Positions 13,056-64,000 of a stretch of 64,000 nucleotides of DNA are shown piece after piece; the first letter of the stretch is position 1, and each line of letters begins with the position of its first letter. Made by a program: the position numbers and the translations under genes. The notes beneath the pieces are model-generated. The model ran no database searches. It was given only the letters and a program-made list of their open reading frames with translations, and was not told the origin of the DNA. Origin of the DNA: Adineta ricciae (lineage: Eukaryota > Rotifera > Eurotatoria > Adinetida > Adinetidae); assembly GCA_905250025.1 (NCBI GenBank), contig CAJNOJ010000278.1, positions 59,491 through 123,490 on the forward strand, in the 5' to 3' direction.

Positions 13056-13387
13056 TAGTTATGCTAATTTGGAAACCAGCAGAGAATACGTTGATCATTC
13101 TATGTGTTATTATTGCTTTTTGGGGTATAACAGATGGAATATGGTTAACGCAAATCACTGTTTTATATGGAATTTTATTTCCGGATAAAAATGAAATTGG
13201 ATTTTTGAATTTTTGTCTTTGGGAATCGGTGGGTTATCTTGCATTTTATTTATTAATGCCATTTATTCGCATCAGAATTGCTCTGATTATTCTTTTGATT
13301 GATCTTGTCTTGAGTATAGTTGGATATGGAATAATTAAATATCGATGGATAACCAAACAAGATGAAAATACGGAAAATAAACCATAA
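13056..13387 (+). CDS. UNC-93A-like protein, copy A, 3' exon fragment
   Basis: Matches 7290-7620, the end of the last exon of the complete UNC-93-like gene, differing mainly by silent changes and a final ENKP instead of ENRP. It supplies the 3' end of the copy begun at 3266-4236. The last four or five membrane helices are present, and it ends at the same stop. Confidence 0.85.
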
Positions 13388-15033: not shown

Positions 15034-17079
15034 AATCTTGTTCAGATCACAAGCAAACAAAAGCGAGTTTAAACGAACGGTTCCGGTGTTTGGCAATAAC
15101 CTAGAAAAAAAAGACAAACAAAAGAAAATACCGTTTACACCAAAAGTGTCTGACCGGTTTAGAATTTTGAGTTGAATAAACGATGAAAGAAAGAATAACA
15201 TGTTCACTCATTTTAACACTTCTTCTATTGGTATTAAACTTCTGAATTCAAGAGCCTTAATCGCATTGTTGATATTAATACTCATAAAACGATCGTTTTC
15301 TAATTATAAACATACTATGTCAACTAATGTATTTTTGTTGTTCTAATCTAAATTTTGATAGTCATTATCTAGTCAAAACGATGTCAATGAAGAAACATGT
15401 TCTACACCTCATAGAAAAATGACATGCGTAAAAGAGGCATCCAAGTGAACAAATAATCTTACAAAGTCATGTTGAGTTATTTTTTCTCAGATAAAAGACA
15501 CTTTTTGTAGTGAATAACAGAGGATTTTTCTAATTTAAATAATGACGTTACATATTTATGCACAAAATATGTGATTGCTAAATGATCTGCACAAAAAATC
15601 TAGTTCAATAGAAATATTTTAACGGAAATCAAATGGAGAAAAGCGCACAATATCAAGAGTTAATACTCGTTAAAATGCGTTAATCTCTGCAACTTTACAA
15701 ACAGTATCACGTTACACTTCACAGAATGAGGTGCTTTTCCAGGTTTTGTTTGTGTGGACTTTATAAAAAGCGCTTTTTGTTGAACCACTCAAAATTATGA
15801 ATGATCATACATATAGAGAGAGAATTGGACGTTTTGATGAAATGCTTAAAAAGTCGAATTTAATAAAATAGCTACACAAGAGCGCTCGTTTCTATAAAAG
15901 AAGCATGCAGCAAGTAAATAGGTATCGACCAGAAAAACGTTTCATAGCGTCGGAAGCCGCTGCGTTGTCTATTCATTAGATAAAGGAGGTTTTTAGAAGG
16001 AAAAAAAAACAGACTATTTGATAAATGAAATGATATTTATATTTGCTTGTAGTACATTCAATGGAAACGGCATCTAAAGGTCAATGATAGCCAATCACTG
16101 CATGATTCACAATGAAAAATACGTTGACGATTCTGCCGTGCAAACATCAAAACGAGAAATGGCAGAGCAGAAAATAGAACAAGTAGGAAAACATCCAACA
16201 GAGCATGAAGAAAAAGTTATTTCTAAATTGATAACTTCATTAAATGCAAAAGATGTGCAATGCAATGAAAGCCAGTATTTCCGGAGAGAAACTAATCAGT
16301 TATGAAGCATAAAACTTAGATTCAGTATCACATAAAATCCGACTTCCGCCCATTCAAGCGATCAAGTCAAAAGAAAAACAGTTTAATCATTTCCATTGTG
16401 AATCTATATCATATAAATAACTTCGTAGATTTTTGTTCTTGTTAGAATGATGAGATACGAATGCATGCGAAAGAAATCTTATAACTCTATAAAAAATTTT
16501 GAAAAAGCACAGAATATAATCCTTCTTCATTCGAATCGTTTCGACTAGGCAATGACTATCTTGAGGATGAGCGATAGTACTGATGAATTAAGGACACTGT
16601 TGAGCGTACAGAATTTTTCAATTCTCATACTTTAGCTCACGCCTTTCATATACATCGCATCTAGATAGTTTTATACGTATCACAATGGCATAAATTGAAA
16701 ATGTAAGCTTTCAAAGATGCTGGTTTTCGTTCAAGGAATACCTTTGATTATTTGTATGAATTCACTACTGGAGGTATTTTTAATGTTGTCCTGCGATATG
16801 CTTCATATATATCGACGTTTTACATTTAATAGTATCAATATTTAGGTTTCGTTGAGTTAAAATGTTATTTCATACAAGATAAATGTTGCTACAATAAAAA
16901 AACTGATCTACTGTTGAATGAAAGCTTTTTCTTCTTTTCACTTGCACTGATGTAATCAAATCTGTTGTTTTAATCTTCATTTACAATGTTTCGAAAGTAA
17001 ATATATAACACAGAATTGTCTATGTGATGTTTGAGTAAAATCGATCTACTCAATAAATGCAAGATTGGATTTTATAGGA
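15034..17079. other. Long intergenic region, copy A
   Basis: No gene supported. Relative to copy B it carries extra blocks near 15732-15815 (about 80 bp), 16382-16555 (about 175 bp) and 16840-17090 (about 230 bp, replacing the TM-coding part of the NHL relic). A frame at 16084-16305 has no recognisable domain and is disrupted in copy B. Confidence 0.5.
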
Positions 17080-17662
17080 ATAACTGTTGTTTCGATAAAG
17101 ACAACTGAGTCAATGAAATAAATAACAACAAGATCTATGTATATAATTGAGTTTGTACTTTTTCGATCGCGATAAAATGAATATCGAAGTTGAGCACTTT
17201 TTTGTCTCATAAATATTTTCGTTAAAATTTAGATCAAACTAGTCTTAAATAGGTGCAGAATGCAATGACTATTGCGGATGGAAACAAATTTGGGAGACAA
17301 TTAAATCAATTGTATTATCCCAGCGGTATGTGTTGGATAAAAGGATTGATTAACCCATTGTCTGTGATCAAGGAAATAGACGTGTCACGTCAAAATCGAA
17401 CTGATCGACAAATACTCATTTCTGATATCTATTGCCGCGGGATTTAACAATTGATAATGATGGAAATCTTTACGTTTTAGATGAAGACAAGAATGAGGTA
17501 AGACGATGGAAGTTAAGCGATAGAAATGGAACAGTAGTAGCTGGTGGAAATAGTTTCAGAAATCAATTCAATTCGCCTTATTACATGTTTGTCGATCAAA
17601 ACTCGACATTGTATATATCTGATTATTGCAATTATCGAGTACAAAAACTTGAGAGCCTCTGA
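17080..17662 (+). pseudogene. Decayed NHL-repeat protein, copy A
   Basis: Counterpart of 11171-11890. It keeps MTIADGNKFGRQLN and a clean pair of NHL repeats (DLTIDNDGNLYVLDEDKNEV, then TVVAGGNSF, NSPYYMFVDQ and LYISDYCNYRVQKL). It lacks about 130 bp of the middle repeat, and the membrane-segment region is replaced by unrelated sequence. A short protein from the last 76 codons is conceivable, but nothing suggests it is functional. Confidence 0.65.
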
Positions 17663-17703
17663 TCTTTAATGAATAGTTATTTATGTTGATACACATAGTT
17701 ACT

Positions 17704-19476
17704 TCAAGGGAGGAATAAGAGTATAATGAAAAGCATGAACATATTGCGATTTGCATAGTTTTGTGCACTGAGATTTTCCGAATTCCCAAACATGAGCAGA
17801 ATATTTTCCTGTTCAAACTGATCGATTAAAAAACAGTCTCGAGTGGATAGCGCTGCTGAAAAGTCATGATAAGGTGTAATTCGAAAATATTTTGGTAACT
17901 CTGGACTATAATTTGGCCACGTTTTCAATGGTTCACCTACTGTAGCCATATTAATCCAATGTAAAATGATTCGATTGGAATATACTTTCGATTCATTATC
18001 CCATGTACAGTTGTGTAAATTTGTTGAATACATTTCACTCATAGTTCCAAATACATATGGCAGTTCTGCTGTATGAATGCATAAGCCCTTACCTTCCTCT
18101 GTTGTCTTAGGAGGACATATTCCAGGATTACAATCCAATTGGTACCAAAATAAATTTCGTTGTTCATATGTCCGATATAAATTGTTGTATATACGACGAG
18201 TACTACAATCATAAACTAGATCCGTGTATAACAGTTGAATCATATTACCGCACCGATTTGACGCGTTTCTATTCGATGAACATGTATTCATGCGAGAACT
18301 ATTAACAAATGCATCTGTCCATTTTTGTCCGACACTCTGAGTAATAACTGCTATGGCACTAGTAGAATTCATATCAGGATCAGAAGAACATGTTGTTGTT
18401 TCATATTCATTACGGCCGATTATCATATTTATATTCTGATTGTATTTCCCTCTCGCAATTGCCAATGGGGGATAGAATGGAAAAAAGTATCCATCAATTA
18501 TTGGTTTTGCTTGACGGATGCTATATGCAGCAATTAAATCAGAGATCGAAGAATTACGCAAACATGTCAAAGTATCTCGATTTTTTATATTGGTACAATT
18601 CATCTGCTGAACAATTTTGCTTGATTCTTTTAGAGCATCGCTAATATTTGAATAATATTGATGAAATCCAGCTGCACTTGATTGTGAGATAATATGTTGA
18701 TACAGATCAGAGGATCCTCTCAATGCACCTATGTCAATCACAGCATTCGCACCAAGACTTTCTCCGAAAAGTAAAACATTGTTCGGATTGCCACCATAAT
18801 CACGAATATTCATATTTATCCAACGTAGTGCTGACAACATGTCTAAATAATAGTAATTCCCAGCTGTTGGCCATGTTGTCGGATTTTCTTGTGCTAATTC
18901 AGTCAAATACATATCACCCAATACACTTAATCTATAGTTAATTGTCACAACAATAACTGATTGCTGTGAAGGTGAATTAGCAATTATATTTGTACCATTA
19001 TATAAAACAGGAATACTTTGAGATGAACAACCGATTTGAAGACCACCTCCATGAATCCAAATGAGGACAGGTAACGAAGACTGATTTGTTGTTTTCAATG
19101 GCGTATAGATATTCAGATATAAACATTGTTCATCTTGCTGTGGTATAATACCTGCAAAGTCAATTTGAGGACAACATGGACCGAATGATGTTGCTTGCAA
19201 TGATCCACGTGGAAATACTTCCGATGCAAGATCAACTGGTGGTTTCCATCGTTCTACTTTTGCGTATTGAATTCTAGAAAATATGATATTAGCGCGATAT
19301 ATTTCAATCATTTCTCTCTACCCTAAATACTCATTGGAATATCGAGTTTGTCGACCATATACAACTCCTTTCCGTGTTTGGAGACTAACATCTGCTGCAA
19401 TAGTAAGACTATTAATACACAATAAACTGAAATATATTAACCAACATTTGAATACACGAAGATTTTGATATGCCAT
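17704..19476 (-). CDS. Secreted, probably GPI-anchored carboxylesterase/cholinesterase-family protein, complete
   Basis: Alpha/beta-hydrolase of the type B carboxylesterase family that hydrolyses carboxylic esters outside the cell. Exons 19322-19476 and 17704-19273 with a 48-bp intron make 574 residues. The start gives a signal peptide (MAYQNLRVFKCWLIYFSLLC...). Active-site parts are all visible: oxyanion loop WIHGGGLQIG, signature EQCLYLNIYTP, nucleophile elbow FGESLGA (Ser), acid in GRNEYET (Glu), and His in CIHTAELPYVFG. Many Cys and N-glycosylation sites fit a secreted protein. The C-terminus ends in a bare hydrophobic run (MFMLFIILLFLP), as in GPI-anchored cholinesterases. It lies 448 bp from the 3' end of the NRPS, on the same strand. 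Whether it acts on the NRPS product is unknown, as this family is common in animals. Confidence 0.88.
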
Positions 19477-19924
19477 CTAAAAGAGAGAAGTTGCGTCCTC
19501 TTTGTCTTCATGCACTTTAAAGTTTCTATTTAAGTAAAACTTTGACATCTGTTATATAGTGACACAAACCCATCATAATCTATCGAGAATAATTTGCAGC
19601 TCTCGTTATAAATTTTGTATAGTAATCGAAATTTCGTTGTCATTTGTCGTTTTGTTTTGTAGTATATTTGCATAGGTAAGAAAAAGAAGATAAATTTTGC
19701 TCTACTTTTTTTGTATATGATCCTTTTATAAATATCGGTTTCTTAATGTTATCACAAGATATCGATATGATTACTTAGTATTTTATTTTTCTTTAAGATT
19801 AAGACAATGTAGAATTTATCGGCATCTAAACCAAGATAAATTCATCACTTAGATGTGATTAAACTTTATTGAAAATTCTTTTTCGATGACTTTCATATTA
19901 CATCTCTTTGGATGAGGGTGAGCA
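19477..19924. other. Spacer between esterase start and NRPS stop
   Basis: 448 bp, AT-rich, conserved in copy B (31763-32212). It presumably holds the NRPS 3' end and the esterase promoter. I recognise no specific motif. Confidence 0.6.
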
Positions 19925-22900
19925 TTAGCTAAGAAGATCATTTAGATGTTTGTCCATGTCATAAACATTGATTTCATCAATGGTTAATTTATTCGTCGTA
20001 TTTTGTTGATTTCTTTGTGAGCTCCAGCCAATTCGTTCATTGAGGTTCTCTCGTGCACGCGCACTTGCCGCTTGAACTCGAGTTGCTCTAGATTTTCTTA
20101 AGAGTTCATACATTTTCAAACCATGTTCGACGGTATGTATTCGGTTTCCCCAATACTTAGGTGAGAATATGATTCCCAATGCAGCTGCATCTTCAATTGC
20201 CATACACGCGCCCTGACTTTGATCAGGCATCATTGGATGAGCAGCATCTCCGAGTAATGCTGCACAGCCCTTCACCCAATATGGATATGGCTCGTGAATA
20301 ACCAATTTCCATAACTTGATGTCTTCGCAATGCTCGAAAATGGCCAGTAAATCTGGATCGAGATCGGGAAAACGCTCGATTAGCATTGATGGTGTTGCGC
20401 TGAAATTCCAGCCTTCTTCACTTTGATCATTGAGTGAAGCTGGATAAAAGCAATAGAAGGACACTATCTCACCTGCACAGCAAGGAGCTAAAACAATCTT
20501 ATTAATTCCAAAACCACCCCAGAATTCAATTGCATTGTTGGGTGCAAAATCTTTCAAACCTAATTGTTTTACGCGCGACGTCGGAATGATGCAACGATAA
20601 CACGCACTTGTCGACGGCGTTGTTTCAGCGACAATTCCCATCAGGCGACGCAGTGTTGAACGGACACCATCCGCACCAATGATCAAATCAACGGATATTG
20701 TTCTGCCTGTATCAAATGTGACAGTACGATGAAGAAAATCAATATCAACTGCTTTATGATCTACAATAATCGTTACTCCCAGAGCTTTCGCTCTAACCTG
20801 CAATTGTTCATGAAGATCAATTCGATGAAACATATTGTAGACATAACCCCATTTCTCTTTATAATCACTCAAATCATAAACATCATTGGGTGTGCCGTCT
20901 TTCCAATTGCGCATAATTAATTTCTTTAGAATAACAGACCTAAAGACAAAATGTAAATAAATAACAAATTCGTTGAATAACATATCAACTAACCTTCCAG
21001 CAACCGTGTCAACACCCCACTCTTCGAGAAATTTTGTTCCATTCGCAGCAACAGAAATCGATGCACCTACTTCGCTAGCAAAGTGAGCTCGTTCATAAAC
21101 AGTGACTTCGTGACCATATCTGCTTAGAGCGATAGCAGCAGATAAACCGCCAATACCACAACCAATAATCGCCACTTTCAAAGGTACAAACAGAGTTGAT
21201 TCTAGTACAACTGAAAATGATTTGATCGCTTGTGCCAGTTGTTGAATCGAAGGATTGGAAAATAAGTGAGATGTATTGATTGTAGGGCAAATATCTTTTC
21301 GAATGAGAGAGACTATTCGTAAAACATCTAGTGATGTTCCACCCATCTCGCTGAATGATTGAGTCACATCCACAGATTCACAATTGAGCACTCGACTGAA
21401 GATTTGACGTAAATGTTCTTCTGTACCAATGCCAGAGAAATGATGAATTGCTACTTGTTGTATTTGTTCAAGTTCATCCGGTAGAATAAGAGAGAGTTTA
21501 CCAATCTGATTAGGTCGTAGAGTTGTTGCGAATATCTGAGAAAATGCAAGTTGAAGTCGTCGACCTATCTTCTCAATCGTGCTTTCATCGAAAATATCTC
21601 GCGATCCGTAAATACTACACAACATTTTTTCAGTTTCACTTGTTGGATTGTAAACAAACGCAACATCGAAATCAAACGCAGTCGCTTCGTGTAATCGTTC
21701 AACAGATACTCGTTCTAAATGTGTTTCATCCAACGAAAGTTTCTGCATGTCAGGAGATACAGTAAGAAGTTCAAATAGAACGTCGAGAAACGAAGCATTC
21801 GAATAGTTCACTCGAAAATCCGCAAGAATTTGCTGTAAGGGATAATGCGTATGTTGAAAAATTGCTGAGCAATTCTCTTGTACGTGCTCAATCAGTTCCT
21901 CAAATGACCAATGAGGATGAATTCGCATTCGAAATGGTAACGTAGCAACAAACATTCCAATTAAGCTTTGTAGTTCATTCCGATGTCGATTCGAATGTAA
22001 GCAGCTGAAGCACAAATCATCGTGACCATTATTTAATTTCCACAGAAATGCATAAAACACACTCATTGCTAATTGGAATGGTGTTACGTGGTATAGAGTT
22101 ACGAATTGCAGAAATTCTCTGGAAATCTCATCGTCGAAATAGATTTGAGTGGCAGATTGAGAACCAGATCGATAGTCCGTGGACAAACAATGTCGATCGA
22201 CAGGTAATGATAATGAGCGGGTGAAGTTATAATCTTTCAATTGAGAATACCAAAAATGACGCGATTGAGTCATATCGATTAAACGTTCGTAGACGGAAGT
22301 ATCGATGCATTGAAGAAGATTTTCACCCATAGATAATGAAGGATCATCGTTTGCACAAGCAAAAGAAAGATCGTTGAGAAACACTGACACTGATATTCCA
22401 TCGAATACTAAATGGTGAATTGTGAAGATGATCAAATCGTCCATCTTTAGTGTATCTTCGTTATGACGACGAATAACATGACAGCACAAAACACGTCCTT
22501 TGGATAAATCAAACAAATCACAACGATTTATGATCTCTTTCATAATTCCATCTGTTTCAAGATCGTTGTTTACATTAACTACTGAAAAACCATATGTTTC
22601 TTGATCATTGATATTGAAGCAATGTTGAATGATCATGCCATGCAAATCCAGGTGAAATCCTGTGCATAGAACTCGATGTTTTGCGATCACGGCATGCAAT
22701 GCTCGATGTAATCGATCGATTGATAGATTCTGATCAGTCGATGAAATTCGATAAACTAATGGAATGACATTCATAACATTGTGATGTTTAGATGGAAAAC
22801 GGATCTGTTCGTCGAGAAAAACTCGTTCTTGGGCGAATGTCGCTTTAGCTGAAATAGAAGTAATCAGCTTCAAACTTTTCTTACATTTTAATCTATACCT

Positions 22901-25900
22901 TCAGTGAGATGCAAAGCAAACCAGGATTGTTCATCGTTGTTTTTCGTGAAAATCGCTTGAGAAATCAAGCGAGAATGATCGACAATTGTTGAATGTGCAA
23001 AGAAGCTAGTAATCGAAAGTGAATTTATCTCTAATTTGAACGTTGTCTGATATCGATAGAAGAGTCTCATGAGAAGGAGAGAATGTCCGCCGATAGAGAA
23101 GATGTTTGAGTCAATTGGGATCTCATCACGATGGAAAATGTCGCACCAGAGTTGATGAACAATTGTTTCGATTCTGGTATTCGGTCTTTTCAGTTCGAGA
23201 TTGATCGTGTTGCGAAATTCAGCAGGAGGTAAGCTTTTCCTATCGATTTTTCCATTGTCATTCCATGGGAATCGTTCAAGAATAACAAACACTGATGGAA
23301 TCATATGAACCGGCAAATGAGATCGACAATGTTCATATAACTCATTTTCTGTCATATCCGAACTTTCGACATACGCAACTAAATAATCATTTTCTTTCGT
23401 GACAATACATGATGAGATTGTTGTGTTGAGTAAACATTGTTGAATTTCACCGGGTTCGATTCGTTGTCCGTGAAACTTAATCTGATCATCTTTTCGATTT
23501 TGATAATGAAGAAAACCATTTTGATCCATTCGAACAATATCACCAGTTTTATAAAAGATCTCATCGTCAATTTCGATAAAAGCATCTTTGGTTAAATCAT
23601 CGCGTTGAAAATATCCAGTGAATACGCCAACACCTGTGACAATTAATTCGCCGATACGACCAACGATACACGGCTGAAAGTACTCATCCAAAATCAAACA
23701 TCGATAATTAGGAATAGGTAAACCAATTGGAACTGTTTCTTGATCTTTTCGGACATCCACGAGATGGTATGTGCAATCAATGGTTGTTTCACTTGGGCCG
23801 TATGTATTCCAAACATGAGCATTTTTAAATAGATGACTAAATAACCTTTTAATTAGGCTCATTCGACTAACGTCACCTAGAATAATCAGATGCGAAAGAC
23901 TTTATCCGATGCTGGAGATATCTTACCGCCGATATCGAGATTTCGTAGTGTGGATATGTGAGATTCTAATGGAAATTCACTCAGGTTGTTGAGATATGAC
24001 GGAACGCTTTGCAAATATGAAATTTGTTTTTCGCTCAGAGTTCGAAGAAGGTAATCAACGTGAAGATTTCCTTGAGGATGAAGCATAATTAAACTCGCTC
24101 CGATCAGCAATGTGCCAAGGATTTCTTGCAGATGAACATCGTATGAGCACTGAGCCATTTGCACAACTGTATCTTTGTTATTTATCAAATCAATCGAAGA
24201 AAGTGAATGAATACATCCAATCAGATTGTCGTGTCGAACTTGAACTGATTTTGGAATTCCCGTCGAACCACTCGTAAAAATAATGTACGCGATACTCTCA
24301 CGTGCAATTCTTATACATGATAAACAATCAATATCATCATTATCACTATACAACACCGATTCGAGATTGATCAATAGAAATTCTGCGTCGGAAAATTTCG
24401 ACATTGTCAACCAATCGGTTAGAATAACACGACTTTTTGTCTGTCGAATGAGTGTGTTTAAACGATATTCCGGATCACCAGGTGACAGTGGACAATAAAC
24501 ACATCCGATCATTTCAATTGCCATAATACCGATTACCTAAACATAGGAATATTTTGAGAACATTGCCCTTCGACTAGAAACGTACCATGAATAAACTTCG
24601 TTCGACGCATTGACAGATGATATCACCCGGAGTGGTAAAGCTCAAGAGATTTAAAGATAAACTTTGTGTATAATATAGAAGTTCAGCGTAGGTGAGAGAT
24701 TGCTTATCGAGTTCAATGGCGAGCTTTTGAGAGTATTTTGTAATTTGATCAGTGAATTTATGACGAATGGATGAAAAGGAAGGAGATGATATTTGAGTGT
24801 TATTCAAGGTTTTCATTAGTAACTGTTCATCGGGTAGTAATAAAGAATATTCACTTATTCCATTACCAGGAAAAAGGAATAATCGGTTCAGTAACCAATG
24901 AAATCGTTGCGACATCGTGGAAATTGTTGTCTGATCATACATATCCAATGAAGCATTGAATGTCACGGAGATCGTTTCGTTTCGACGATGTTCAAAAATT
25001 GAACACACCAAATCGAATTTGGCGATGTTTCCAGTGAAGATTCGTCGATCGATGAAGTGAAGTGAATTCTCTGGATCAATTTCGATATTTTGTTCAGTAT
25101 TGTCGATCTTTGTGTCGATGAGAAAAAGCGTTTGAAGAAATGAAGATCGTAAATGTGGATTTAATTTCACCATTTCCTGATAAGGAAAATTTGAATGAGG
25201 AAAGATTTCCAACCAATTTTGTTGAATTCGTTGGCAAAATTCACGAAACGATTCAAAAGGATGAATTTCGACGAAAAATGGAATGGTATTTACAAAGAAT
25301 CCGAGAAGATGTTCAAGTTCGTATTGGGATCGATTAGCAGCGACAATCCCTGTGCAGAATTCTAATTGATCATTGTTCGAGAGTTTGAAAAGGAAAACAA
25401 AAAATGCAGCGAGACCAACTTGAAAAAGCGTCAAATTTGATTGCGTTATAAATTGATTCAAAGATTTAACAATCATTCGATCTAAATCAAATGTGATTGT
25501 GTAACCTCTGCCTGTTTTCACCGAATAATTTTCTTGCTGAATTGAAGGATGAACTGATGTTAAAATTTCCTTCCAATACTGTCGAGCAATCGACCAATCC
25601 TCTAATCTTTCGTACTGGGAATAGTCAAGATAAGTAAGACGCTCATTTTCATCGTTAGACAACTTTCCGGTGAGGAGAACTTGACGAAGATTGTTGATGA
25701 ACACTTGAATGGAATTTCCATCAACTGCGATATGATGAAAATTGAAAATGATCATGTCGTCACGTCTTAAATCCTTTGCGGATGATTGAAGAAGTAAATG
25801 ACAGCGAAAAACTTTCCCTTGTTCGAGTTTAAACAACGATCGATTGGTTTCTTCATTGTAAAATATCGTTTCTATCTCAATGTTAGTTGTTACACGTGTC

Positions 25901-28184
25901 ACTTGAATTGGATAATGTTCGGAGGACAATGGAAGAATCTTTTGGGTTAATCGATCTTGATCAAATGCCACGGCTGTACGAAGAATAGGGTTTTTATCAA
26001 CAACAAGTCGAAGACCTTGACGAAGTCGTTCAATCGAAAATGAACTAAGAGATTTTAATTGGTAGATCAATAATTCATTGAAAACGGACACTTCTTCATG
26101 GAAACGAACTTGTTCGTCCATCCAAAGACGCGTTTGAGCAAATGAAGCGGTACCTATTTACAAAGGGCAAGATGAAAAACAATATAAATATTAGCTTTAC
26201 CTTGTATTAAATGGAGTGGAGTCCAAATCGTTTTTAGTTTTGGTCTGCTATTTTGTAAGAGTTGAACATGATCGGCGATGGTTGGAGTGAGAAAGAAGTC
26301 GAGAACGTTGAGTTGCATATCGAGACCGAAATGAAACTGATAATAATTGAAAAACTGGATTAATGTTAAAGATGAGCCGCCCAATGCGAAACAATTCGCA
26401 TAACGTGGAACAGAATTTAATTGTAAGACATTGCACCATAGTTTGTGGATTTGATCTTCTAATTCTGAGATTGGTTTGTCAACGATTTGAACGTTGTTGA
26501 GTAGTGATGGGGTTGGAAGCTGTTTTCGATCGATTTTTCCATTGGAATTCAATGGAAATTTATGAAGAATGATGATATGAGATGGAACCATATACTGACG
26601 CAGGTGCTGACGACAATGATTTCGAATTTCTTCAATATTGAGATCGGGACTGTGTGAAACGATATAAGCAACTAATGAATCTTTGTTTTGTGGAGATTTT
26701 ATCACAAGACAACCGGAGATTTGATCCCGAGACCAATTCATAATTGTATCTTCAATCTCCGTTGTTTCAACTCGTTGACCATGAATTTTGATTTGAAAAT
26801 CCGCACGTCCAGCGTGAACAAGTTCGCCTCGTTCGTTGTATCGAGCTAAATCCCCTGTTTTTAAATAAATCTGATTATCAATAGTAATAAGAATATCATT
26901 CGTTCGTTCTGGATCATTAAGATAGCCATCAAACAGAGTGGGTCCTACAAAGGAATGAAAATGAATTGATATACACATGATCGAACTATACTAGCGTTCA
27001 CCTCCTATGAGAAGTTGACCTATCTGATTTGAATTATTCGTTTTATCGATAATGTCATCTTGTTCACTGACGAGTAAACAACGAACATTAACGAATGGAC
27101 AACCAATAGGTATCGTTGTATTGTAAACATCGAACAGTTGACAACCAAGAACTCCATTACATTCTGACATACCGTACTGAGAATTGATTCGAGTAGTTGG
27201 CAGATTCAAATAACTCAGGAATTTTATCCATTGCGGAGGATTGATTGCTTCGGCTATAACATAATCCTTACATCATCGATAAATCTATTTTATTCACTAC
27301 GTACCCGTTACGCATATATTGAGAACATATTTGAATGTATCAATTTGTTGACTGATCTCTAAAAAATCGATCAAAGCTCGAATAATTGCTGGACCAATGA
27401 TCATCGTTGTGACTTGCTGATTGATTAGAGTCTTTGATAAATATGACATGTCCAAATGTCCACCAGGCCGTAAGAGTACAACAGATCCGCCCACAACCAA
27501 TGGTAACGAAATTTCTGATAACTGTAAAATCCATGTACAGGTAGCAAGTTGAAGAACTTGGTCTCGAACTGTATACATAGTCGCGTTCCATTGGATATAA
27601 GCTGCATTACTTGCTGCAAAACTTCGATGGGTATGAAGGATTGCTTTGGGTCGGCCAGTTGTTCCTGATGTACAAACAATAAATGCAGGACCATCTTCTA
27701 CACAATATGGAAGTTCATTCCTGTCTTCAGTTTGTGATGATGGGAAAAGAATTTTTTCTAGGAAAATGACATGCTTTACCATATCTGCTGGAAACTGTTT
27801 GAATGTTAATTGATGAACGAAAACATATTGACTTTGGATTTGTTCCAAGATGGAAAGAAGACGCGATGGAGAATCTGTTGGATTTAATGGACAATACACA
27901 CCACCAGAACAAATGATACCTAAGAATCCACAGACCATTTCTAAACTACGTTCAACAAATTGATATATGATTTGACCTCGGATGATCTTTAAATTCTGCA
28001 AGTAGTCAGTAATACGTTCAACTTGTTCGATCAATTCACCGTATGTCCACATTTGAGAATCAAGAATCAGGGCGATTTTTTGGGGACGAACTTCAGCCAT
28101 ATGAAATAGCTGATGTAAAACATAGTATGATGACGACATGAGTAACTGTTTTACAGCAAAAATGATCGACTCATATATTGACAT
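19925..28184 (-). CDS. Nonribosomal peptide synthetase fused to FAD monooxygenase (A-T-C-A-T-C-T-FMO)
   Basis: Eight exons (27305-28184, 27002-27253, 26201-26944, 24586-26153, 23927-24536, 22899-23876, 20994-22848, 19925-20939) with 47-57 bp introns total 7902 bp, or 2633 residues. Domains by approximate residue: A1 15-540 (CTSGTTGRPK, YLKTGDLARY, NGKIDRK near 513); T1 with LGGSS, Ser near 568; C1 626-1065 with HHIAVDG near 765; A2 1085-1570 (TSGSTGIPK, NTYGPSE, YKTGDI, NGKIDRK); T2 with GGHS, Ser near 1617; C2 1678-2120 with HHLVFDG near 1822; T3 with MGGTS, Ser near 2183; then a class A flavin monooxygenase from about 2235 (GCGIGG, IIGADGVRS, LLGDAAHP). C2 runs straight into T3 with no A domain, and there is no thioesterase. 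The start is the first ATG after an in-frame stop. The 54-bp intron at 20940-20993 is in frame, so a naive reading retains it. It probably makes a short, oxidised peptide-like product. Microbial origin by transfer is inferred. Confidence 0.9.
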
Positions 28185-30550
28185 TCTGTTTGACGTAGTT
28201 TCAACACACGCCCTTTTCGAACTATCAAGAACACAAATTTCTCACCAGAGTAACATATGTGAATGTTAGTGAAGAAAAAGTACGTTACAGATATGTTTAT
28301 GACGAAGCAAAATAGTTGTCGGCCTTCTATGTATATTACTCATCAATACTCACGTCTCCGTAAGTATCGTGAAAAAACAAATTTCAAAACGAAATGAATG
28401 TAAGTGTAAGTCTTGCATTGCAAGGTTACAGGAATGAATCTTTCTATTTCGATGTTTACACAGCAATTGAATTGGGTATGCTCTTGAATTTTTAAAGATG
28501 AGTTTTTCCCCCGTTGAAAAAGAGTTTCAATGGAAAACTAAAGGACGACTTTTCATTTTGAGAGTTAAAAATATTTAGTACAATCCTAAAGTAGTGAAAG
28601 AGGTACATTAGTGCACGGAGCAGAGGTCTAGCGTGGAATGTGTCGGTATTATTATCTTCTTCCATGCCTTATCCTCTCTTCTTACTTCAAATGACTACTA
28701 AAGATTTTTACCTGTTCACAAAAGTTCGAGCTGCACTCAGTATTCCAGCAAGAACTATCCATGATTAAGCTCGTGATCTGAGCACAATAGAACAGTGGTC
28801 AAAATTGTTTCGTGATGGCCGAGAAGAAACTCAAGATAGAGCACGAACTGATAGACTTATCACTAGAATAACAACTCAAAACATTGGCTGTGCAAGAAAC
28901 GTGCCGTTTATGTGACATCGCTACTGCGGTGGCGAGTCCTAGTTCTGTCACAAACAGATCGATTCCATGAATTCTTCAAATCGAGATGAGCACAAGAAAA
29001 TCGTCCAGAAATGGGTTTAAAGAATACAGCTGTGAGTAAATAATCACGTGGTAAGAAATGATGTATGGACGGTAATATCAGCTTGTGCTACCAGTGAGTT
29101 GTATACAAAAATGCTTTCTCGAAATTTTCCTAACTTATTACAAGGTGATGACCTATCCAATAGCGCAGAAAAGCATACTGAAATACGCTCTATCTAATGA
29201 TAAAAAGAAGAACATTTTCTGGATCTATGTTTAATGAAATAATGTACCTCCCTAGAACAGTGAAAGAAAAAAAAATGTCTGTATTAGTTGTGTGACAGCT
29301 CTGAACTGTAGAACTGGTTACCACCGATTCATGTGAACTGACACAACCAGTTCATCAAAAGAAACTGGTGAAGATGAGACTGAACAAGTCTTTCTTTATC
29401 CAACTGATCACTCAGTTCAGTTCCTATTATCTGAAATAGGTCACATGAGTTCCGCTATTTAAACTGAACCGGAACTGTCACACACGTATTTATTACTTCA
29501 TTGTCTCATTTATATATTTGATGATGAAATAAACGTTCGATATAATAATGTCATTACAATTAGATGTCTAATTAGAAATATAGTGTAGAAAGAATTTTAA
29601 ATTTATTCTTTCGATCATTATCAATAATAAAAGAGCAATTTGTAAACAGATATTATGAACTATACATACAACAAATCTCTATAAGATAAAAGTTTGATTT
29701 CTTCTCATCATAATCGAATAACTTATTTTGATCTTTCATTATTTTCATTTCATTAACTTTAAAACATAAACAATAGATTTTATTTCGAAATACAATATTT
29801 TCCTTCGATATTGATGATACTCATGCAACGTAATTACAATTAAACTAAGATTTTTAACAATATATAGTTCACCATATTACTTTCAAAGTTGCTTCGTTAC
29901 TGTTGACAAAGATCGAAGAAAGGATAAGTTTAAAGTTCGTTCTACATTATATTTCGAATTAAATATTCATTTATCCTGTCCTTGACAAATAGTTTCATCT
30001 TCAATTATAAAACCAACTTCTAAACAAAATCAAAGTTTTTATAACTTAATCTATAAATTAGATTTTTCACAACAAACACACATGAATAATAAATATTTTG
30101 TCATAATATCCTTTTACTTTCTTTCTGAAATAAAACACACATTGCTTGACACTTCTTGTATTTATTTCTTCCATGTTCATATTCGCTTTTCTAATTTTTC
30201 ACAGTAAAGTGATCTACTGGTTAATTCTATGCTAGAGATGGTGGAATATACCCGTTAATTTGCAATTAATTAATTCAATAAGTGTTCAATATAAAAGGTT
30301 TGATTATCGATATAATTCGTAAAATAGAAGTAACAGAGCTCTAAAGCCTAGTGATCAATCCGTTAACAGTTAATTAACGTGTGTTAAATTAAATGATCCA
30401 GCGCTATAGTTCTAGCTGTGTCAGGAATTGTAGATTTGCACATCCGCTTGTTAATTTTTTTAATCTTCAAGTTTCAGTACGATACAAAAAATACAACATC
30501 GATGGAAAAAGATATTCTGTTTCAGAAACTGTATAATAAATTTTATATAA
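28185..30550. other. Intergenic region upstream of the NRPS
   Basis: Contains the mariner relic at about 28720-28920, and an inverted-repeat stretch at about 29289-29484 (tgtgtgacag at one end, ctgtcacaca at the other) that looks like a small non-coding insertion absent in that form from copy B. Otherwise AT-rich with no gene. The NRPS promoter should lie just upstream of 28184, but I recognise no motif. Confidence 0.5.
28720..28920 (+). pseudogene. Relic of mariner-type transposase N-terminus, copy A
   Basis: Translation in broken frames gives pieces such as ARDLSTIEQWSKLF and DGREE followed by a T-rich ITR stretch. This matches the helix-turn-helix start of mariner transposases (the pattern STIEQWxKxFRxGRE). 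The frame is interrupted and no catalytic domain remains. The other copy at 39351-39551 has one longer open stretch. Confidence 0.5.
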
Positions 30551-31056
30551 TTATTTAATCTCTGCTGGATTTTCTATATTAATTGGAATAATTCGATTTG
30601 GTCGACATTTATTCCTAAACACATCATAGAAAACATATTTTGTTTGTCGACGAAATCTTTTCGAGGCAAAATTATAAGTATAAAATGAATTCTAAACAAT
30701 TGAAAAGTTCAGTTTTATGGAAAAGAAATATAATTAAATCTTACTCCATTGCTTAGAAAACTAATTGTTAATGCAATTGCATTGATCAAACTCAATTGAG
30801 CAAGATACACTGGTTCACGATTGGTATTTAACGCTGAAATTGCATTTATTATTGAATATGGTGTATAAGTACAAGCATAAACACCAATTTCTAGAAGAAC
30901 CATTGATGTTAATTGTTTATCTAATTCACGTCGAATAATTGGATTCGTTCGTGTTAATAAACTTCGTGCATTTCGATATGCTAAGAAACCAAAAATTACA
31001 GCAATTAATGGGAAAAGGTTTCCATATACTATGGAAAGTCCATAAACATGATATTG
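30551..31056 (-). CDS. Rhodopsin-like 7-TM receptor (GPCR 2), copy A, C-terminal part (cut by join)
   Basis: Exons 30745-31056 (truncated at the N) and 30551-30691, joined by a 53-bp intron, encode TM5 to TM7 and the tail. Visible are RRELDKQLTSMVLLEIGVY before TM6 and FYTYNFASKRFRRQ after TM7. The tail ends NPAEIK, three bases longer than copy B. The N-terminal half is missing at the join. See 40961-41997 for the complete copy. Confidence 0.8.
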
Positions 31057-32212: not shown

Positions 32213-34556
32213 TTAGCTAAGAAGATCATTTAGATGTTTGTCCATGTCGTAAACATTGATTTCATCAATAGTTAATTTATTCGTCGTATTTTGTTGATTT
32301 CTTTGTGAGCTCCAGCCAATTCGTTCATTGAGGTTCTCTCGTGCACGCGCACTTGCCGCTTGAACTCGAGTTGCTCTAGATTTTCTTAACAGTTCATACA
32401 TTTTCAAACCATGTTCGACCGTATGTATTCGGTTTCCCCAATACTTAGGTGAGCATATGATTCCCAATGCAGCTGCATCTTCAATTGCCATACACGCGCC
32501 CTGACTTTGATCAGGCATCATTGGATGAGCAGCATCCCCGAGTAATGCTGTACAGCCCTTCACCCAATATGGATATGGCTCATGAATAACCAATTTCCAT
32601 AACTTGATGTCTTCGCAATGTTCGAAAATGGCCAATAAATCTGGATCGAGATCGGGAAAACGCTCGATTAGCATTGATGGCGTTGCGCTGAAATTCCAGC
32701 CCTCTTCACTTTGATCATTGAGTGAAGCTGGATAAAAGCAATAGAAGGACACTATCTCACCTGCACAACAAGGAGCTAAAACAATCTTATTAATTCCAAA
32801 ACCACCCCAGAATTCAATTGCACTGTTGGGTGCAAAATCTTTCAAGCCAAATTTCTTTACGCGCGACGTCGGGATGATGCAACGGTAACACGCACTTGTT
32901 GACGGCGTTGTTTTAGCAACAATTCCTATCAAGCGACGCACTGTTGAACGGACACCATCCGCACCAATGATCAAATCAGCGGATATTGTTTTGCCTGTAT
33001 CAAATGTGACAGTACGATGAAGAAAATCAATATCAACTGCTTTATGATCTACAACAATTGTTACTCCCAGAGCTTTCGCTCTGATCTGCAATTGTTCATG
33101 AAGGTCAATTCGATGAAACATATTGTAGACATAACCCCATTTTTCTTTATAATCACTCAAATCATAAACATCATTGGGTGTACCATCTTTCCAATTGCGC
33201 ATAATTAATTTCTTTAGAATAACAGATCTAAAGACAAAATTTAAATAACAAATTCGTTGAATAACATTAACAACTAACCTTCCAGCAACCGTGTCAACAC
33301 CCCACTCTTCGAGAAATTTTGTTCCATTCGCAGCAACAGAAATCGATGCACCTACTTCGCTAGCGAAGTGAGCTCGTTCATAAACAGTGACTTCGTGGCC
33401 ATATCTGCGTAGAGCGATAGCAGCGGATAAACCGCCAATACCACAGCCAATAATCGCCACTTTCAAAGGTACAAACAGAGTTGATTCTACTACAGCTGAA
33501 AATGATTTGATCACTTGTGCCAGTTGTCGAATCGAAGGATTGGCAAATAAGTGAGATGTATTGATTGTAGGACAAATATATTTTCGAATGAGAGAGACCA
33601 TTCGTAAAACATCCAATGATGTTCCACCCATCTCGCTGAATGATTGAGTCACATCCACAGATTCACAATTGAATACTCGACTGAAGATTTGATGTAAACG
33701 TTCTCCTATAGCAATGTCAGAGAAATTATGAATTGCTACTTTTTGTATTTGTTCAAGTTCATCCGGTAGAACAAGAGAGAGTTTACTAATCTGACTAGGT
33801 CGTAGAGTTGTTGTGAATATCTGAGAAAATGCAAGTTGAAGTCGTCGACCTATCTTCTCAATCGTGCTTTCATCGAAAATATCTCGCGATCCATAAATAT
33901 TACATAATAACTTTTCAGTTTCACTTGTTGGGTTGTAAACAAACGCAACATCGAAATCAAATGCAGTCGCTTCGTGTAACCGTTCAATAGATACGCGTTC
34001 TAAATGTGTTCCATCCAATGAAAGTTTCTGCATGTCAGAAGATACAGTAAGAAGTTCAAATAGAACCTCGAGAAACGAAACATTCGAATAATTCACTCGA
34101 AAATCCGCAAGAATTTGCTGTAAGGGATAATGCGTATGTTGAAAAATTGCTGAGCAATTCTCCTGTACATGCTCAATCAGTTTCTCAAATGACCAATGAG
34201 GATGAATTCGCATTCGAAATGGTAACGTAGCAACAAACATTCCAATTAAACTTTGTAGTTCATTCCGATATCGATTCGAATGTAAACAGCTGAAGCACAA
34301 ATCACTGTGACCATTAGATAATTTCCACAGAAATACATAAAACACACTCATTGCTAATTGGAATGGTGTTACGTGGTATAGAGTTACGAATTGCAGAAAT
34401 TCTCTGGAAATCTCATCGTCGAAATAGATTTGAGTGGCAGATTGAGAACCAGATCGATAGTCCATGGATAAACAATGTCGATCAACAGGTAATGATAATG
34501 ATCGAGTGAAGTTATAATCTTTCAATTGAGAATACCAAAAATGACGCGATCGAGTC
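32213..34556 (-). CDS. NRPS-FMO, copy B, C-terminal part (C2, T3, monooxygenase)
   Basis: Exons 33279-34556 (cut at the join) and 32213-33227, with a 51-bp intron at 33228-33278. The last exon is 1015 bp, exactly as in copy A. It contains the C2 C-terminal lobe (GMFVATLPFRM), T3 with MGGTS, and the whole monooxygenase (GCGIGG, IIGADGVRS, LLGDAAHP). The HHxxxDG motif of C2 falls in the sequence missing at the join. The A-less C2-to-T3 junction is the same as in copy A, so that architecture is not an assembly error. No stops or frameshifts. Confidence 0.87.
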
Positions 34557-34557: not shown

Positions 34558-37500
34558 CGATGCGAAAGACTTTAATCGATGGAAGGGATATCTTACCGCC
34601 GATATCGAGATTTCGTAGTGTGGATATGTGAGATTCGAAGGAAAATTCATTGAGGTTATTGAGATATGACGGAACGCTTTGTAAATATGAAATTTGTTTT
34701 TCATTCAGAGTTCGAAGAAGGTAGTCAATATGAAGATTTCCTTGAGGATGAAGCATAATTAAACTCGCTCCGATCATCAATGTGCCAAGAATTTCTTGCA
34801 GATGAACATCGTATGAGCATTGAGCCATTTGTACAACTGTATCTTTGCTATTTATCAAATCAATTGAAGAAAGTGAATGAATACATCCAATCAGGTTTCC
34901 GTGTCGAACTTGAACTGATTTTGGAATTCCCGTCGAACCGCTCGTAAAAATAATGTACGCGATACTCTCATGTGCGATTCTTATATGTGATAAACAATCA
35001 ATATCATTATTGTCACTATACAACATTGACTCAACATTGATCAATAGAAAGTCTGCGTCGGAAAATTTCGATATTGTTAACCAATCGGTTAGGATAACAC
35101 GACTTTTTGTCTGTCGAATGAGTGTATTTAAACGATATTTCGGATCACCGGGTGACAGTGGACAATAAACGCATCCGATCATTTCAATTGCCATAATACC
35201 GATTACCTAAACATAGGAATATTTTGAGAACATTGTCTTTTAACTAGAAACGTACCATGAATAAACTTCGTTCAACGCATTGACAGATGATATCACCTGG
35301 AGTGGTAAAATTCAAGAGATTTAAGGATAAACTTTGCGTATAATATAGGAGTTCAGCGTAAGTGAGAGATTGCTTATCGAGTTCAATGGAGAGCTTTTGA
35401 GAGTATTTTGTAATTTGATCAGTGAATTTATGACGAATGGAAGAAAAGGAAGGAGATGATATTTGAGTGTTATTCAAGGTTTTCATTAGTAACTGTTCAT
35501 CGGGTAGTAATAAAGAATAATCACTTATTTCATTACCAGGAAAAAGGAATAATCGGTTTAGTAACCAATGAAATCGTTGCGACATCGTGGAAATTGTTGT
35601 CTGATCATACAAATCCAATGAAGCATTTAATGTCACTGAGATCGTTTCGTTTCGACGATGTTCAAAAAGTGAACACACCAAATCGAATTTGGCGATGTTT
35701 CCAGTGAAGATCCGTCGATCGATGAAGTGGAGTGAATTCTCTGGATCAATTTCGATAGTTTGTTCAGTATTGTCGATCTTTGTGTCGATGAGAAAAAGTG
35801 TTTGAAGAAATGAAGATCGTAAATGTGGATTTAATTTCACCATTTCCTGATAAGGAAAATTGGAATGCGGAAAGATTTCCAACCAGTTTTGTTGAATTCG
35901 TTGGCAAAATTCAGGAAACGATTCAAAAGGATGAATTTCGATGAAAAATGGAATGGTATTTACGAAGAATCCGAGAAGATGTTCAAGTTCGTATTGGGAT
36001 CGATTCGCAGCGGCAATCCCTGTGCAGAATTCTAATTGATCATTGTTCGAGAGTTTGAAAAGGAAAACAAAAAATGCAGCGAGACCAACTTGAAAAAGCG
36101 TCAAATTTGATTGCGTTATAAATTGATTCAAAGATTTAACAATCATTCGATCTAAATCAAATGTGATTGTGTAACCTCTGCCCGTTTTCACCGAATAGTT
36201 TTGTTGCTGAATTGAAGGATGGACTGATGTTAAAATTTCCTTCCAATACTGTCGAGCAATCGACCAATCCTCTAATCTTTCGTACTGGGAATAGTCAAGG
36301 TAAGTAAGATGCTCATTTTCGTCGTTAGACAACTTTCCTGTGAGAAGAACTTGACGAAGATTGTTGATAAACACTTGAATGGAATTGCCATCAACTGCGA
36401 TATGATGAAAATTAAAAATGATCATGTCGTCACGTGTTAACTCTTTTGCGGATGATTGAAGAAGTAAATGGCAGCGAAAAACCTTCCCTTGTTCGAGTAT
36501 GAACAAGGATCGATTGGTTTCTTCATTGTAAAATATCATTTCTATCTCAATGTTAGTTTTTACGCATGTCACTTGAATTGGATAATGTTCGGAGGACAAT
36601 GGAAGAATCTTTTGGATTAATCGTTCTTGATCAAATGTCACGGCTGTACGAAGAATAGGATTTTTATCAACAACAAGTCGAAGACCTTGACGCAGTCGTT
36701 CAATTGGCAATGAACTAGACGATTTTAACTGGTAGATCAATAATTCATTGAAAACGGACACTTCTTCGTGGAAACGAACTTGTTCGTCCATCCAAAGACG
36801 AGTTTGAGCAAACGAAGCAGCACCTATTTACAAAGGACAAGGTGAAAAACAATATGAACATTAGCTTTACCTTGTATTAAATGGAGTGGAGTCCAAATGG
36901 TTTTTAGCTTTGGTCTGCTATTTTGTAAGAGTTGAACATGATCGGCAATGGTTGGAGTGAGAAAAAAGTCGAGGACGTTGAGTTGCATATCGAGACCGAA
37001 ATGAAACTGATAATAATTGAAAAATTGGATTAATGTTAAAGATGAGCCGCCCAATGCGAAACAATTCGCATAACGAGGAACAGAAGTCAATTGTAAGACA
37101 TTACACCATAGTTTGTGGATCTGATCTTCCAATTCTGAGATTGGTTTGTCAACGATTGGAACGTTGTTGAGTAGTGATGGGATTGGAAGCTGTTTTCGAT
37201 CGATTTTTCCATTGGAATTCAATGGAAATTTATGAAGAATGATGATATGAGATGGAACCATATACTGACGCAGGTGCTGACGACAATGATTTCGAATTTC
37301 TTCAATATTGAGATCGGGACTGTGTGAAACGATATAAGCAACTAATGAATCTTTGTTTTGCGGAGATTTTATCACGAGACAACCGGAAATTTGATCTCGA
37401 GACCAATTCATAATTGTATCTTCAATCTCCGTTGTTTCAACTCGTTGGCCATGAATTTTGATTTGAAAATCCGCACGTCCAGAGTGAACAAGTTCGCCTC

Positions 37501-38856
37501 GTTCGTTGTATCGAGCTAAATCCCCTGTTTTTAAATAAATCTGATTATCAATAGTAATAAGAATGTCATTCGTTCGTTGTGGATCATTAAGATAGCCAGC
37601 AAACAGAGTGGGTCCTACAAAGGAATGAAAAATAAATTGATATTCACATGATCGAACTAAACTAGCGTTCACCTCCTATGAGAAGTTGACCTATCTGACT
37701 TGTACTATTGGTTTTATCGATAATATCATCTTGTTCACCGACGAGTAAACAACGAACATTAACGAATGGACAACCAATAGGTATCGTTGTATTGTAAACA
37801 TCGAATAGTTGACAACCAAGAACTCCATTACATTCTGACATGCCGTACTGAGAATTGATTCGAGTAGTTGACAAATTTAAATAACTCAGAAATTTTATCC
37901 ATTGCGGAGGATTGATTGCTTCGGCTATAACATAATCCTTACATCATCGATAAATCTGTTTTTATTCAGTACGTACCCGTTATGCATATATTGAGAACAT
38001 ATTTGAACGTATCAACTTGTTGGCTGATCTCTAAAAAATCGATCAAAGCTCGAATAATTGCTGGACCAATGATCATCGTTGTGACTTGCTGATTGATCAG
38101 AGTCTTTGATAAATACGACATGTCTAAATGTCCACCAGGTCGTAAGAGTACAACAGATCCACCCACAACCAATGGTAACGAAATTTCCGATAACTGTAAA
38201 ATCCATGTACAGGTAGCAAGTTGAAGAACTTGGTCTCGGACTGTATACATAGTCGCGTTCCATTGAATGTAAGCTGCATTACTTGCTGCAAAACTTCGAT
38301 GGGTATGAAGGATTGCTTTGGGTCGGCCAGTTGTTCCTGATGTACAAACAATAAATGCAGGGCCATCTTCTACACAATATGGAAGTTTACTCCTGTCTTC
38401 AATTTGTGATGATGGGAAAAGAATTTCTTCTAGGAAAATGACGTGCTTAACTATATCCGCTGGAAACTGTTTAAATGTTAATTGATGAACGAAAACATAT
38501 TGACTTTGGATTTGTTCCAAGATGGAAAGAAGACGCGATGGAGAATCTGTTGGATTCAATGGGCAATACACACCACCGAAACACATGATACCTAAGAATC
38601 CACAGACCATTTCTAAACTACGTTCAACAAATTGATAAATAATTTGACCTCTGATGATCTTTAAATTCTGCAAGTAGTCAGTAATACGTTCGACTTGTTC
38701 GATCAATTCACCGTATGTCCACATTTGAGAATCAAGAATCAGGGCGATTTTTTGGGGATGAACTTCAGCTATATGAAATAGCCGATGTAGAACATAGTAT
38801 GATGACGACATGAGTAACTGTTTTACAGCAAAAATGGTCGACTCATATATTGTCAT
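34558..38856 (-). CDS. NRPS-FMO, copy B, N-terminal part (A1, T1, C1, start of A2)
   Basis: Exons 37977-38856, 37673-37924, 36871-37614, 35256-36823 and 34597-35206 have lengths 880, 252, 744, 1568 and 610 bp, all equal to copy A; the piece ends inside the next intron. All core motifs seen in copy A recur: CTSGTTGRPK, YLKTGDLARY, NGKIDRK, LGGSS, HHIAVDG and TSGSTGIPK. The start at 38856 is the homologous ATG. In this copy the frame stays open upstream, with another ATG near 38922 that copy A does not support. Changes are scattered substitutions of a few percent, with no inactivating lesion seen. Confidence 0.88.
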
Positions 38857-63903: not shown

Positions 63904-64000
63904 CTAAAAAGAAAATAAAGATATTTTACATAAAATTTTAATCAAGACCTTTTTTACTGAAGTAATATTATATGTTTCGTACATCAAGGATATTAGATAT

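What the first reader, a model, noticed from the sequence alone, without database searches (positions are those of the whole stretch)
19925..28184. Animal-type intron-bearing NRPS fused to a flavin monooxygenase
The sequence shows seven NRPS domains (A-T-C-A-T-C-T) and a C-terminal class A FAD monooxygenase in one spliced frame whose exon phases sum exactly to 2633 codons. Few animal loci encode multimodular NRPSs, and a monooxygenase in the releasing position is unusual. Short introns show it is a resident gene of a eukaryote, so it is not contamination. Flanking GPCR and esterase genes agree. Microbial origin is inferred. The product is unknown.
Basis: partly seen in the sequence, partly recalled or inferred. 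Interest (0 to 1): 0.9.

Follow-up and report, generated by a model that had tools for sequence, protein, structure and literature searches.

The report
Animal peptide synthetase ending in flavoenzyme
A tiny-animal genome, probably a bdelloid rotifer's, carries an intact microbe-style assembly-line enzyme for small peptides with an oxygen-inserting flavin enzyme fused to its end, which is a new variant of a gene family already known in these animals.

Summary
On the minus strand, 28184-19925, eight exons and seven GT-AG introns splice to exactly 2633 residues, ordered A1-T1-C1-A2-T2-C2-T3-FMO with the expected motifs. A second copy (38856-32213, probably the other allele, about 1.6 kb unassembled) repeats the T3-FMO join, keeps frame, and gives dN/dS 0.19, FMO 0.12. 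This is a resident, constrained eukaryotic gene. Intron-bearing bdelloid NRPSs are already known (PMC3846280, PMC10531068, PMC11258130). The terminal class A monooxygenase is the new part: none of my paper or prokaryote searches showed such a fusion. A1 lacks the Asp that anchors alpha-amino acids, A2 keeps it, module 3 has no A domain, and no releasing domain was found. Best reading: a non-amino acyl starter is joined to an A2-chosen amino acid, passed to T3, and oxidised in cis by the FMO. Substrates, product and release are inferred. The FMO's nearest solved relatives are fungal 4-hydroxybenzoate/vanillate 1-hydroxylases, but its origin is unsettled (AU p 0.37). Species and transcript were not shown.

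The parts
27305..28184 (-). exon 1 (ATG at 28184-28182)
   Evidence: counterpart 38856-37977
27002..27253 (-). exon 2
   Evidence: counterpart 37924-37673
26201..26944 (-). exon 3
   Evidence: counterpart 37614-36871
24586..26153 (-). exon 4
   Evidence: counterpart 36823-35256
23927..24536 (-). exon 5
   Evidence: counterpart 35206-34597
22899..23876 (-). exon 6
   Evidence: not assembled in copy 2
20994..22848 (-). exon 7
   Evidence: counterpart of its 3' part ends at 33279
19925..20939 (-). exon 8, stop codon 19927-19925
   Evidence: counterpart 33227-32213
26535..28103 (-). A1 adenylation domain (aa 28-514), Ile at the GrsA Asp235 position
   Evidence: Pfam; coordinates
26259..26456 (-). 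T1 carrier domain (aa 541-606), GGSSL
   Evidence: Pfam (0.3 bits over cut-off)
24823..26148 (-). C1 condensation domain (aa 628-1069), HHIAVDG
   Evidence: Pfam
23248..24756 (-). A2 adenylation domain (aa 1092-1561), pocket D V Q Q D G T I D
   Evidence: Pfam (AMP-binding_C part below its cut-off)
22972..23160 (-). T2 carrier domain (aa 1591-1653), GGHSL
   Evidence: Pfam
21482..22902 (-). C2 condensation domain (aa 1677-2133), HHLVFDG
   Evidence: Pfam
21224..21415 (-). T3 carrier domain (aa 2156-2219), GGTSL; no A domain belongs to it
   Evidence: Pfam
20072..21178 (-). class A flavin monooxygenase domain (aa 2235-2585), interrupted by intron 7
   Evidence: Pfam; solved relatives; model and fold
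19865..19870 (-). AATAAA 54 nt after the stop codon, possible polyadenylation signal
   Evidence: sequence, counted by hand
34558..38856 (-). second copy (probably the other allele), 5' part: A1 to the first half of A2, with introns
32213..34556 (-). second copy, 3' part on another contig: end of C2, T3, FMO; about 1.6 kb between the two parts is not assembled

Best explanation
A domesticated, horizontally derived NRPS of a bdelloid-like animal, extended at its C-terminus by a group A flavoprotein monooxygenase. Shown: gene structure, domain order, motifs, purifying selection between two copies. Inferred: A1 charges T1 with a carboxylic acid that is not an ordinary alpha-amino acid; C1 joins it to an alpha-amino acid chosen by A2 on T2; C2 hands the chain to T3, which is either empty or loaded by A2 across modules, as SidC does; the FMO, held next to T3, hydroxylates the bound intermediate, most likely an aromatic ring; release is by hydrolysis, cyclisation or an enzyme in trans. 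A host phosphopantetheinyl transferase would arm the three T domains. The product would be a small oxidised acyl-peptide, plausibly a defence compound.
For: Eight domains in one frame with core motifs. Of 14 motifs looked for in copy 2, 13 were found; the 14th (C2 HHLVFDG) lies in its gap, as do T2's Ser motif and A2's A10 motif, which were not tested there. dN/dS: A1 0.145, C1 0.17, A2 0.16, C2 0.30, FMO 0.12 (A2 and C2 covered in part, T2 not at all). A1 has Ile at GrsA Asp235, A2 has Asp (GrsA segment checked against 1amu); the A1 motif is the same in copy 2. FMO: GxGxxG, GADG and GDAAH motifs; best sequence and fold matches are FAD aromatic hydroxylases. Copy 1 has one Met, 2179 inside T3, between residue 2100 and the FMO's GxGxxG at 2240, so a separately translated FMO would carry part of T3 or lose its FAD motif. 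Inter-modular loading by an A domain is reported for SidC (PMC10192304, abstract and section headings). In bdelloids 11 of 36 NRP/PKS genes of A. ricciae and 2 of 60 of A. vaga rose after 24 h with a fungal pathogen (PMC11258130).
Against: No transcript, protein or product was seen. T3 has 4 synonymous and 11 non-synonymous changes between copies (dN/dS 0.84; Fisher p 0.014 against the rest, not corrected for the seven domains tested), so T3 may be less constrained; 6 of the 11 amino-acid changes lie at 2152-2165 and 5 at 2189-2218, the Ser motif is unchanged. Copy 2 has a further Met at 2189 in T3. No releasing domain and no A3. A1's pocket beyond 278 could not be aligned reliably. The closest solved FMOs are described as acting on free aromatic acids, not on carrier-bound chains. 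Most bdelloid NRP/PKS genes were not induced in PMC11258130.
Confidence: 0.5

Rival explanations
1. The FMO is the releasing catalyst: ipso-hydroxylation of a 4-hydroxybenzoyl-type end group cleaves the chain from T3, an oxidative off-loading in place of a thioesterase.
For: Pfam shows no TE, reductase or third C domain. The three nearest solved FMOs are 8x38 (decarboxylative vanillate 1-hydroxylase, Phanerochaete chrysosporium), 8gsm (named 4-hydroxybenzoate decarboxylase, VibMO1) and 8r2t (4-hydroxybenzoate 1-hydroxylase, Gelatoporia subvermispora).
Against: Only 33-35% identity to those enzymes. That a thioester carbonyl is a poor substitute for the free carboxylate in this chemistry is my judgement, not tested. 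TrlE and 3-hydroxybenzoate 6-hydroxylase match nearly as well in fold.
Confidence: 0.12
2. C2-T3 is a decaying module, and the FMO works on free host or microbial metabolites while merely attached to the NRPS.
For: T3 dN/dS 0.84 and C2 0.30 are the highest of the seven domains measured; C2 plus T3 against the rest, Fisher p 0.007, chosen after seeing the values. No A domain in module 3.
Against: T3 is the best PP-binding match of the three (48.4 bits); its Ser motif and the frame through the linker are kept in both copies.
Confidence: 0.15
3. Two genes: an NRPS ending at T3 and a separate FMO gene.
For: None of the 80 best bacterial FMO loci has an NRPS-like or T3-like match adjoining the FMO frame, so these relatives look stand-alone. 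Met 2179, and in copy 2 also Met 2189, could in principle start a separate FMO with part of T3 in front.
Against: No stop between T3 and FMO in either copy; T3 and the FMO's FAD motif lie in one exon; a separate FMO would have to begin inside T3.
Confidence: 0.04
4. A silent relic or assembly artefact.
For: The scaffold is a mosaic: seven single-N joins, apparently two haplotypes interleaved; copy 2 lacks about 1.6 kb.
Against: Copy 1 lies wholly inside one N-free block, 13056-31056, with the carboxylesterase gene; open frame and dN/dS 0.19; codon use matches four other genes of the window, r 0.96 for the NRPS part and 0.92 for the FMO.
Confidence: 0.06

Closest known systems
Bdelloid horizontally acquired NRPS/PKS genes (Adineta, Rotaria)
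   Same: multimodular NRPS genes, at least one family intron-bearing with about 50 copies in A. vaga (PMC3846280); 12-79 NRPS clusters per species (PMC10531068)
   Different: the word monooxygenase does not occur in the three main texts, nor does flavin; FAD occurs only inside an author name; supplements could not be read
Group A FMOs of fungi: vanillate 1-hydroxylase 8x38, GsMNX1 8r2t, VibMO1 8gsm
   Same: FAD aromatic hydroxylase fold and motifs, 33-35% identity, best fold matches
   Different: the solved chains are 465-496 residues, stand-alone; the window enzyme has PDQSQGA where they have PYRAQGA or PYLAQGA
Fungal ferrichrome synthetase SidC
   Same: loading of amino acids across modules is shown for SidC (abstract and section headings of PMC10192304); T domains without their own A domain (recalled)
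   Different: no FMO (recalled); SidC makes a cyclic hexapeptide siderophore
Linear gramicidin synthetase LgrA and other bacterial NRPSs
   Same: best solved matches for A1-T1 and A2-T2
   Different: low identity; A1 lacks Asp235; no FMO

Membership tests
NRPS | A domain with core motifs and Lys of A10 | tested here: met
   Two AMP-binding domains, TSGTTGRPK / TSGSTGIPK, NGKIDRK twice
NRPS | carrier domain with phosphopantetheine Ser | tested here: met
   GGSSL, GGHSL, GGTSL; PP-binding over cut-off in 3 of 3 pieces, T1 only by 0.3 bits
NRPS | condensation domain with HHxxxDG | tested here: met
   2 of 2
NRPS | complete C-A-T module for each extension | tested here: not met
   module 3 is C-T without A; a known variation, so it does not remove membership
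NRPS | makes a peptide product | not testable with these tools
   no biochemistry possible
Bdelloid NRPS family | spliceosomal introns in a foreign-type gene | tested here: met
   seven GT-AG introns; GT-AG kept in the 5 of 7 that copy 2 covers; no transcript seen
Bdelloid NRPS family | host is a bdelloid rotifer | tested here: inconclusive
   eukaryotic neighbours and two colinear series fit; no genome held for the window, species not shown
Bdelloid NRPS family | C domain falls in the bdelloid clade of PMC11258130 | not tested
   no bdelloid sequence was at hand
Group A flavoprotein monooxygenase | GxGxxG, DG and GD motifs and FAD_binding_3 fold | tested here: met
   (model pLDDT 85.5; 8x38 E 1.3e-36)
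Decarboxylating 1-hydroxylase (MNX1 type) | monophyly with those enzymes | tested here: inconclusive
   grouped with 3 solved fungal enzymes at 98/99 and 87/99, but the AU test does not reject a place with bacteria, p 0.37
Decarboxylating 1-hydroxylase (MNX1 type) | decarboxylative hydroxylation | not testable with these tools
   needs assay
NRPS with oxidase or monooxygenase inserted in an A domain (recalled kind) | flavoenzyme lies inside the A domain | tested here: not met
   FMO follows T3 at the C-terminus

The most novel reading that the evidence does not exclude
The animal itself built a chimeric assembly line: a bacterial-type NRPS joined to a fungal-type aromatic hydroxylase, which oxidises and frees the carrier-bound product. 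That would be a termination chemistry that I know of in no NRPS, evolved in a metazoan.
Probability: 0.1. Interest if true: 0.8.

Novelty: new variant of a known kind. Interest (0 to 1): 0.42.

Why it matters
Bdelloid NRPS/PKS genes are proposed to make antibiotics in an animal (PMC11258130), yet the parts of the papers that I read name only a predicted product, no isolated one. This gene is compact (2633 residues), complete in one frame, constrained, and ends in an enzyme whose action would be easy to see by mass (+16, or a loss of CO2). That makes it a practical target for finding a first bdelloid nonribosomal metabolite.

Tried and rejected
A first placing of intron 1 (acceptor at 27267) broke the frame; the acceptor at 27254 restored it. 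Search for prokaryotic T-FMO fusions: of 80 loci, 0 have an NRPS-like or T3-like tblastn match adjoining the FMO frame; L079 has a separate AMP-binding-like match elsewhere, and L027 has a 295-residue stop-to-stop extension before its FMO that gave no match and was not followed. In 8 genomes no match spans T3 and FMO. 3 of 292 genomes of the phylum of G001 and 1 of 296 of the phylum of G002 gave matches at the strict limits used (1e-30, 1e-44), all starting after T3 (at most 5 candidates scored per genome, so far from exhaustive). 790 of 72,556 plasmid records match C2-T3-FMO and 0 cover 80% of it in one place. In 60 genomes of the order of G003, 46 with a FAD_binding_3 match at 1e-25, the longest open frame listed is 831 residues (at most 28 candidates scored per genome). 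Fungal and animal proteins could not be searched. A fungal origin of the FMO looked good in one tree, but with an end branch of 4.05, only 3 fungal rows, and bacterial rows picked by words shared with them; it did not survive the AU test with 39 of the 80 bacterial rows. Bdelloid telomere motif TGTGGG: 7 on both strands, no excess over a hand estimate of about 11. Rfam and tRNA scans: nothing. C2 had no solved match at 1e-15, C1 had 10. Of the papers listed as holding the words for a monooxygenase domain and NRPS, three were opened for passages (PMC4109984, PMC7692728, PMC5756342) and none showed an NRPS-FMO fusion; the other four were seen only as listings.
Full report
What is there. The gene runs on the minus strand from 28184 to 19925. 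Seven introns of 47-57 nt, all GT-AG, leave 2633 codons and a stop. Pfam on the whole protein and on pieces gives A1, T1, C1, A2, T2, C2, T3 and a C-terminal FAD_binding_3 domain. Motifs expected for working enzymes are present: TSGTTGRPK and TSGSTGIPK, two NGKIDRK, three GGxSL carrier motifs, two HHxxxDG, and in the FMO GCGIGG, GADG and GDAAHP. The meaning of the motifs is established knowledge of these families, recalled.

A second copy and what it tells. The window has seven single-N joins. Aligning the blocks between them shows two colinear series: B1, B3, B6, B7 against B2, B4, B5. At the limits used (plus strand, over 140 bases, E 1e-30) blocks of one series match only blocks of the other, in order; B8 has a weaker match (73.6%) to B5 that looks like a paralogue. 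The simplest reading is that contigs of two haplotypes were interleaved in one scaffold; a real tandem duplication is not excluded. The second NRPS-FMO copy is split over B5 (A1 to half of A2) and B4 (end of C2, T3, FMO), with about 1.6 kb missing between. Over the 2114 of 2634 codons that align there is no net indel and no early stop; introns 1, 2 and 7 differ in length by 1, 1 and 3 nt, introns 3 and 4 do not; GT-AG is kept in the five introns covered; dN/dS is 0.19. Per domain: A1 0.145, T1 0.025 (9 synonymous, 1 not), C1 0.17, A2 0.16 (266 codons), C2 0.30 (260 codons), T3 0.84 (4 and 11 changes), FMO 0.12. T2 is not covered. So the gene model, and selection on its protein, are supported by comparison, without transcripts.

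The FMO is joined to the NRPS. T3 and the FMO's FAD-binding start lie in one exon in both copies, with no stop between. In copy 1 the only Met between residue 2100 and GxGxxG at 2240 is 2179, just before the T3 Ser motif; copy 2 has one more, at 2189. A separate FMO would therefore start inside T3 or lack GxGxxG. An AlphaFold model of the FMO, made with 39 of the 80 bacterial relatives and reading through intron 7, has mean pLDDT 85.5; its two stretches under 50 are 65-79, which falls in the intron-encoded insert, and 387-401, in the C-terminal tail.

Not contamination. Copy 1 lies inside one N-free block (13056-31056) with a carboxylesterase gene (17707-19317). The end of that block matches the 7tm_1 gene at 41125-42060 of the other series. 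Other receptor-like frames (8901-9461 was scanned, its likeness lies at about 14600-15200) have no Pfam match. Codon usage of the NRPS part correlates 0.96 with four other genes of the window, the FMO part 0.92; third-position GC is 0.30 and 0.32 against 0.17-0.29 in five. No whole genome is held for the window, so the species was not shown; bdelloid is an inference.

How it may work. A2 keeps the Asp that binds the substrate's amino group; its letters at the GrsA positions 235, 236, 239, 278, 299, 301, 322, 330, 331 are D V Q Q D G T I D. I know of no exact match to this code (recall, no search); two further acids in the pocket would suit a polar or basic amino acid. A1 has Ile, Leu and Ser at 235, 236 and 239. 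Loss of Asp235 is a sign, recalled from known aryl-, hydroxy- and keto-acid domains, that the substrate is not an alpha-amino acid. A1 opens the line without a C domain, so it would load the starter. C1 joins it to the A2 amino acid. C2-T3 has no A domain; SidC shows that one A domain can load across modules (PMC10192304, abstract and section headings). The FMO then sits beside T3. Its nearest solved relatives by sequence and by fold are vanillate 1-hydroxylase of Phanerochaete chrysosporium (8x38), VibMO1 (8gsm) and GsMNX1 of Gelatoporia subvermispora (8r2t); that VibMO1 is fungal is recalled. PMC12915361 (passages only) describes MNX1 of Trametes versicolor, an orthologue of GsMNX1, as a decarboxylating 4-hydroxybenzoate 1-hydroxylase. 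Hydroxylation of an aromatic part of the chain is therefore the likeliest act; oxidative release is possible but unproved.

Origin. A1-T1 and A2-T2 match bacterial LgrA best among solved chains, though solved NRPSs are mostly bacterial. The best bacterial FMO relatives are 27-34% identical over the best segment (80 loci), and 37% for one actinobacterial gene by another measure. A tree of 84 rows put the window FMO with the three solved fungal enzymes (98/99), on a very long branch. A second tree of 43 rows gave 87/99, and the AU test did not reject placing it with the bacteria (p 0.37). The origin stays open.

What is known. PMC3846280 (passages) describes an intron-bearing bdelloid NRPS gene of bacterial origin, a family of about 50 copies per genome, one of them moved by Penelope elements. 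PMC10531068 (abstract, results, figures and tables, passages; [quoted passage not shown] PMC11258130 (abstract, two results sections, passages) reports NRP/PKS genes, 11 of 36 in A. ricciae and 2 of 60 in A. vaga, induced by a fungal pathogen. The word monooxygenase is in none of these three main texts. Six searches of the paper library for NRPSs with a flavin or FAD monooxygenase domain, or for bdelloid NRPSs, showed no such enzyme in what I saw of their listings and in three papers opened for passages; most subscription papers, all preprints and all supplements are outside that search. Among prokaryotic sequences sampled I found no such fusion, with the limits given under Tried and rejected; fungal and animal proteins could not be searched.

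Verdict. The gene is most likely a member of a known animal gene family with a new ending. The function of that ending is the open and testable question.

Noticed in passing
1-64000; N at 4237, 13055, 31057, 34557, 56811, 59262, 62052: The scaffold interleaves two colinear series of contigs (pieces about 78-99% identical), apparently two haplotypes, joined by single Ns; gene counts from it would be inflated.
   Followed up: yes
46942-48956: Probable Tc/mariner-type transposon: inverted ends of about 150 bp (85% alike) around a frame with weak DDE_3 and Tc3 helix-turn-helix matches, both below Pfam's cut-off.
   Followed up: partly
21215-21430: T3 shows an excess of amino-acid changes between the two copies (4 synonymous, 11 non-synonymous).
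   Followed up: partly
54884-56158 and 62642-63925: Two long open frames on the minus strand, 73.6% alike in DNA; the one scanned, 54884-56158, has no Pfam match.
   Followed up: no
52934-53719: Open frame in a stretch of strong AT skew (0.211 in 52001-54000) without a Pfam match.
   Followed up: no
about 20212-20253 (aa 2526-2539): The FMO has PDQSQGA where three solved relatives have PYRAQGA or PYLAQGA next to the flavin motif; it may alter the substrate or flavin site.
   Followed up: no
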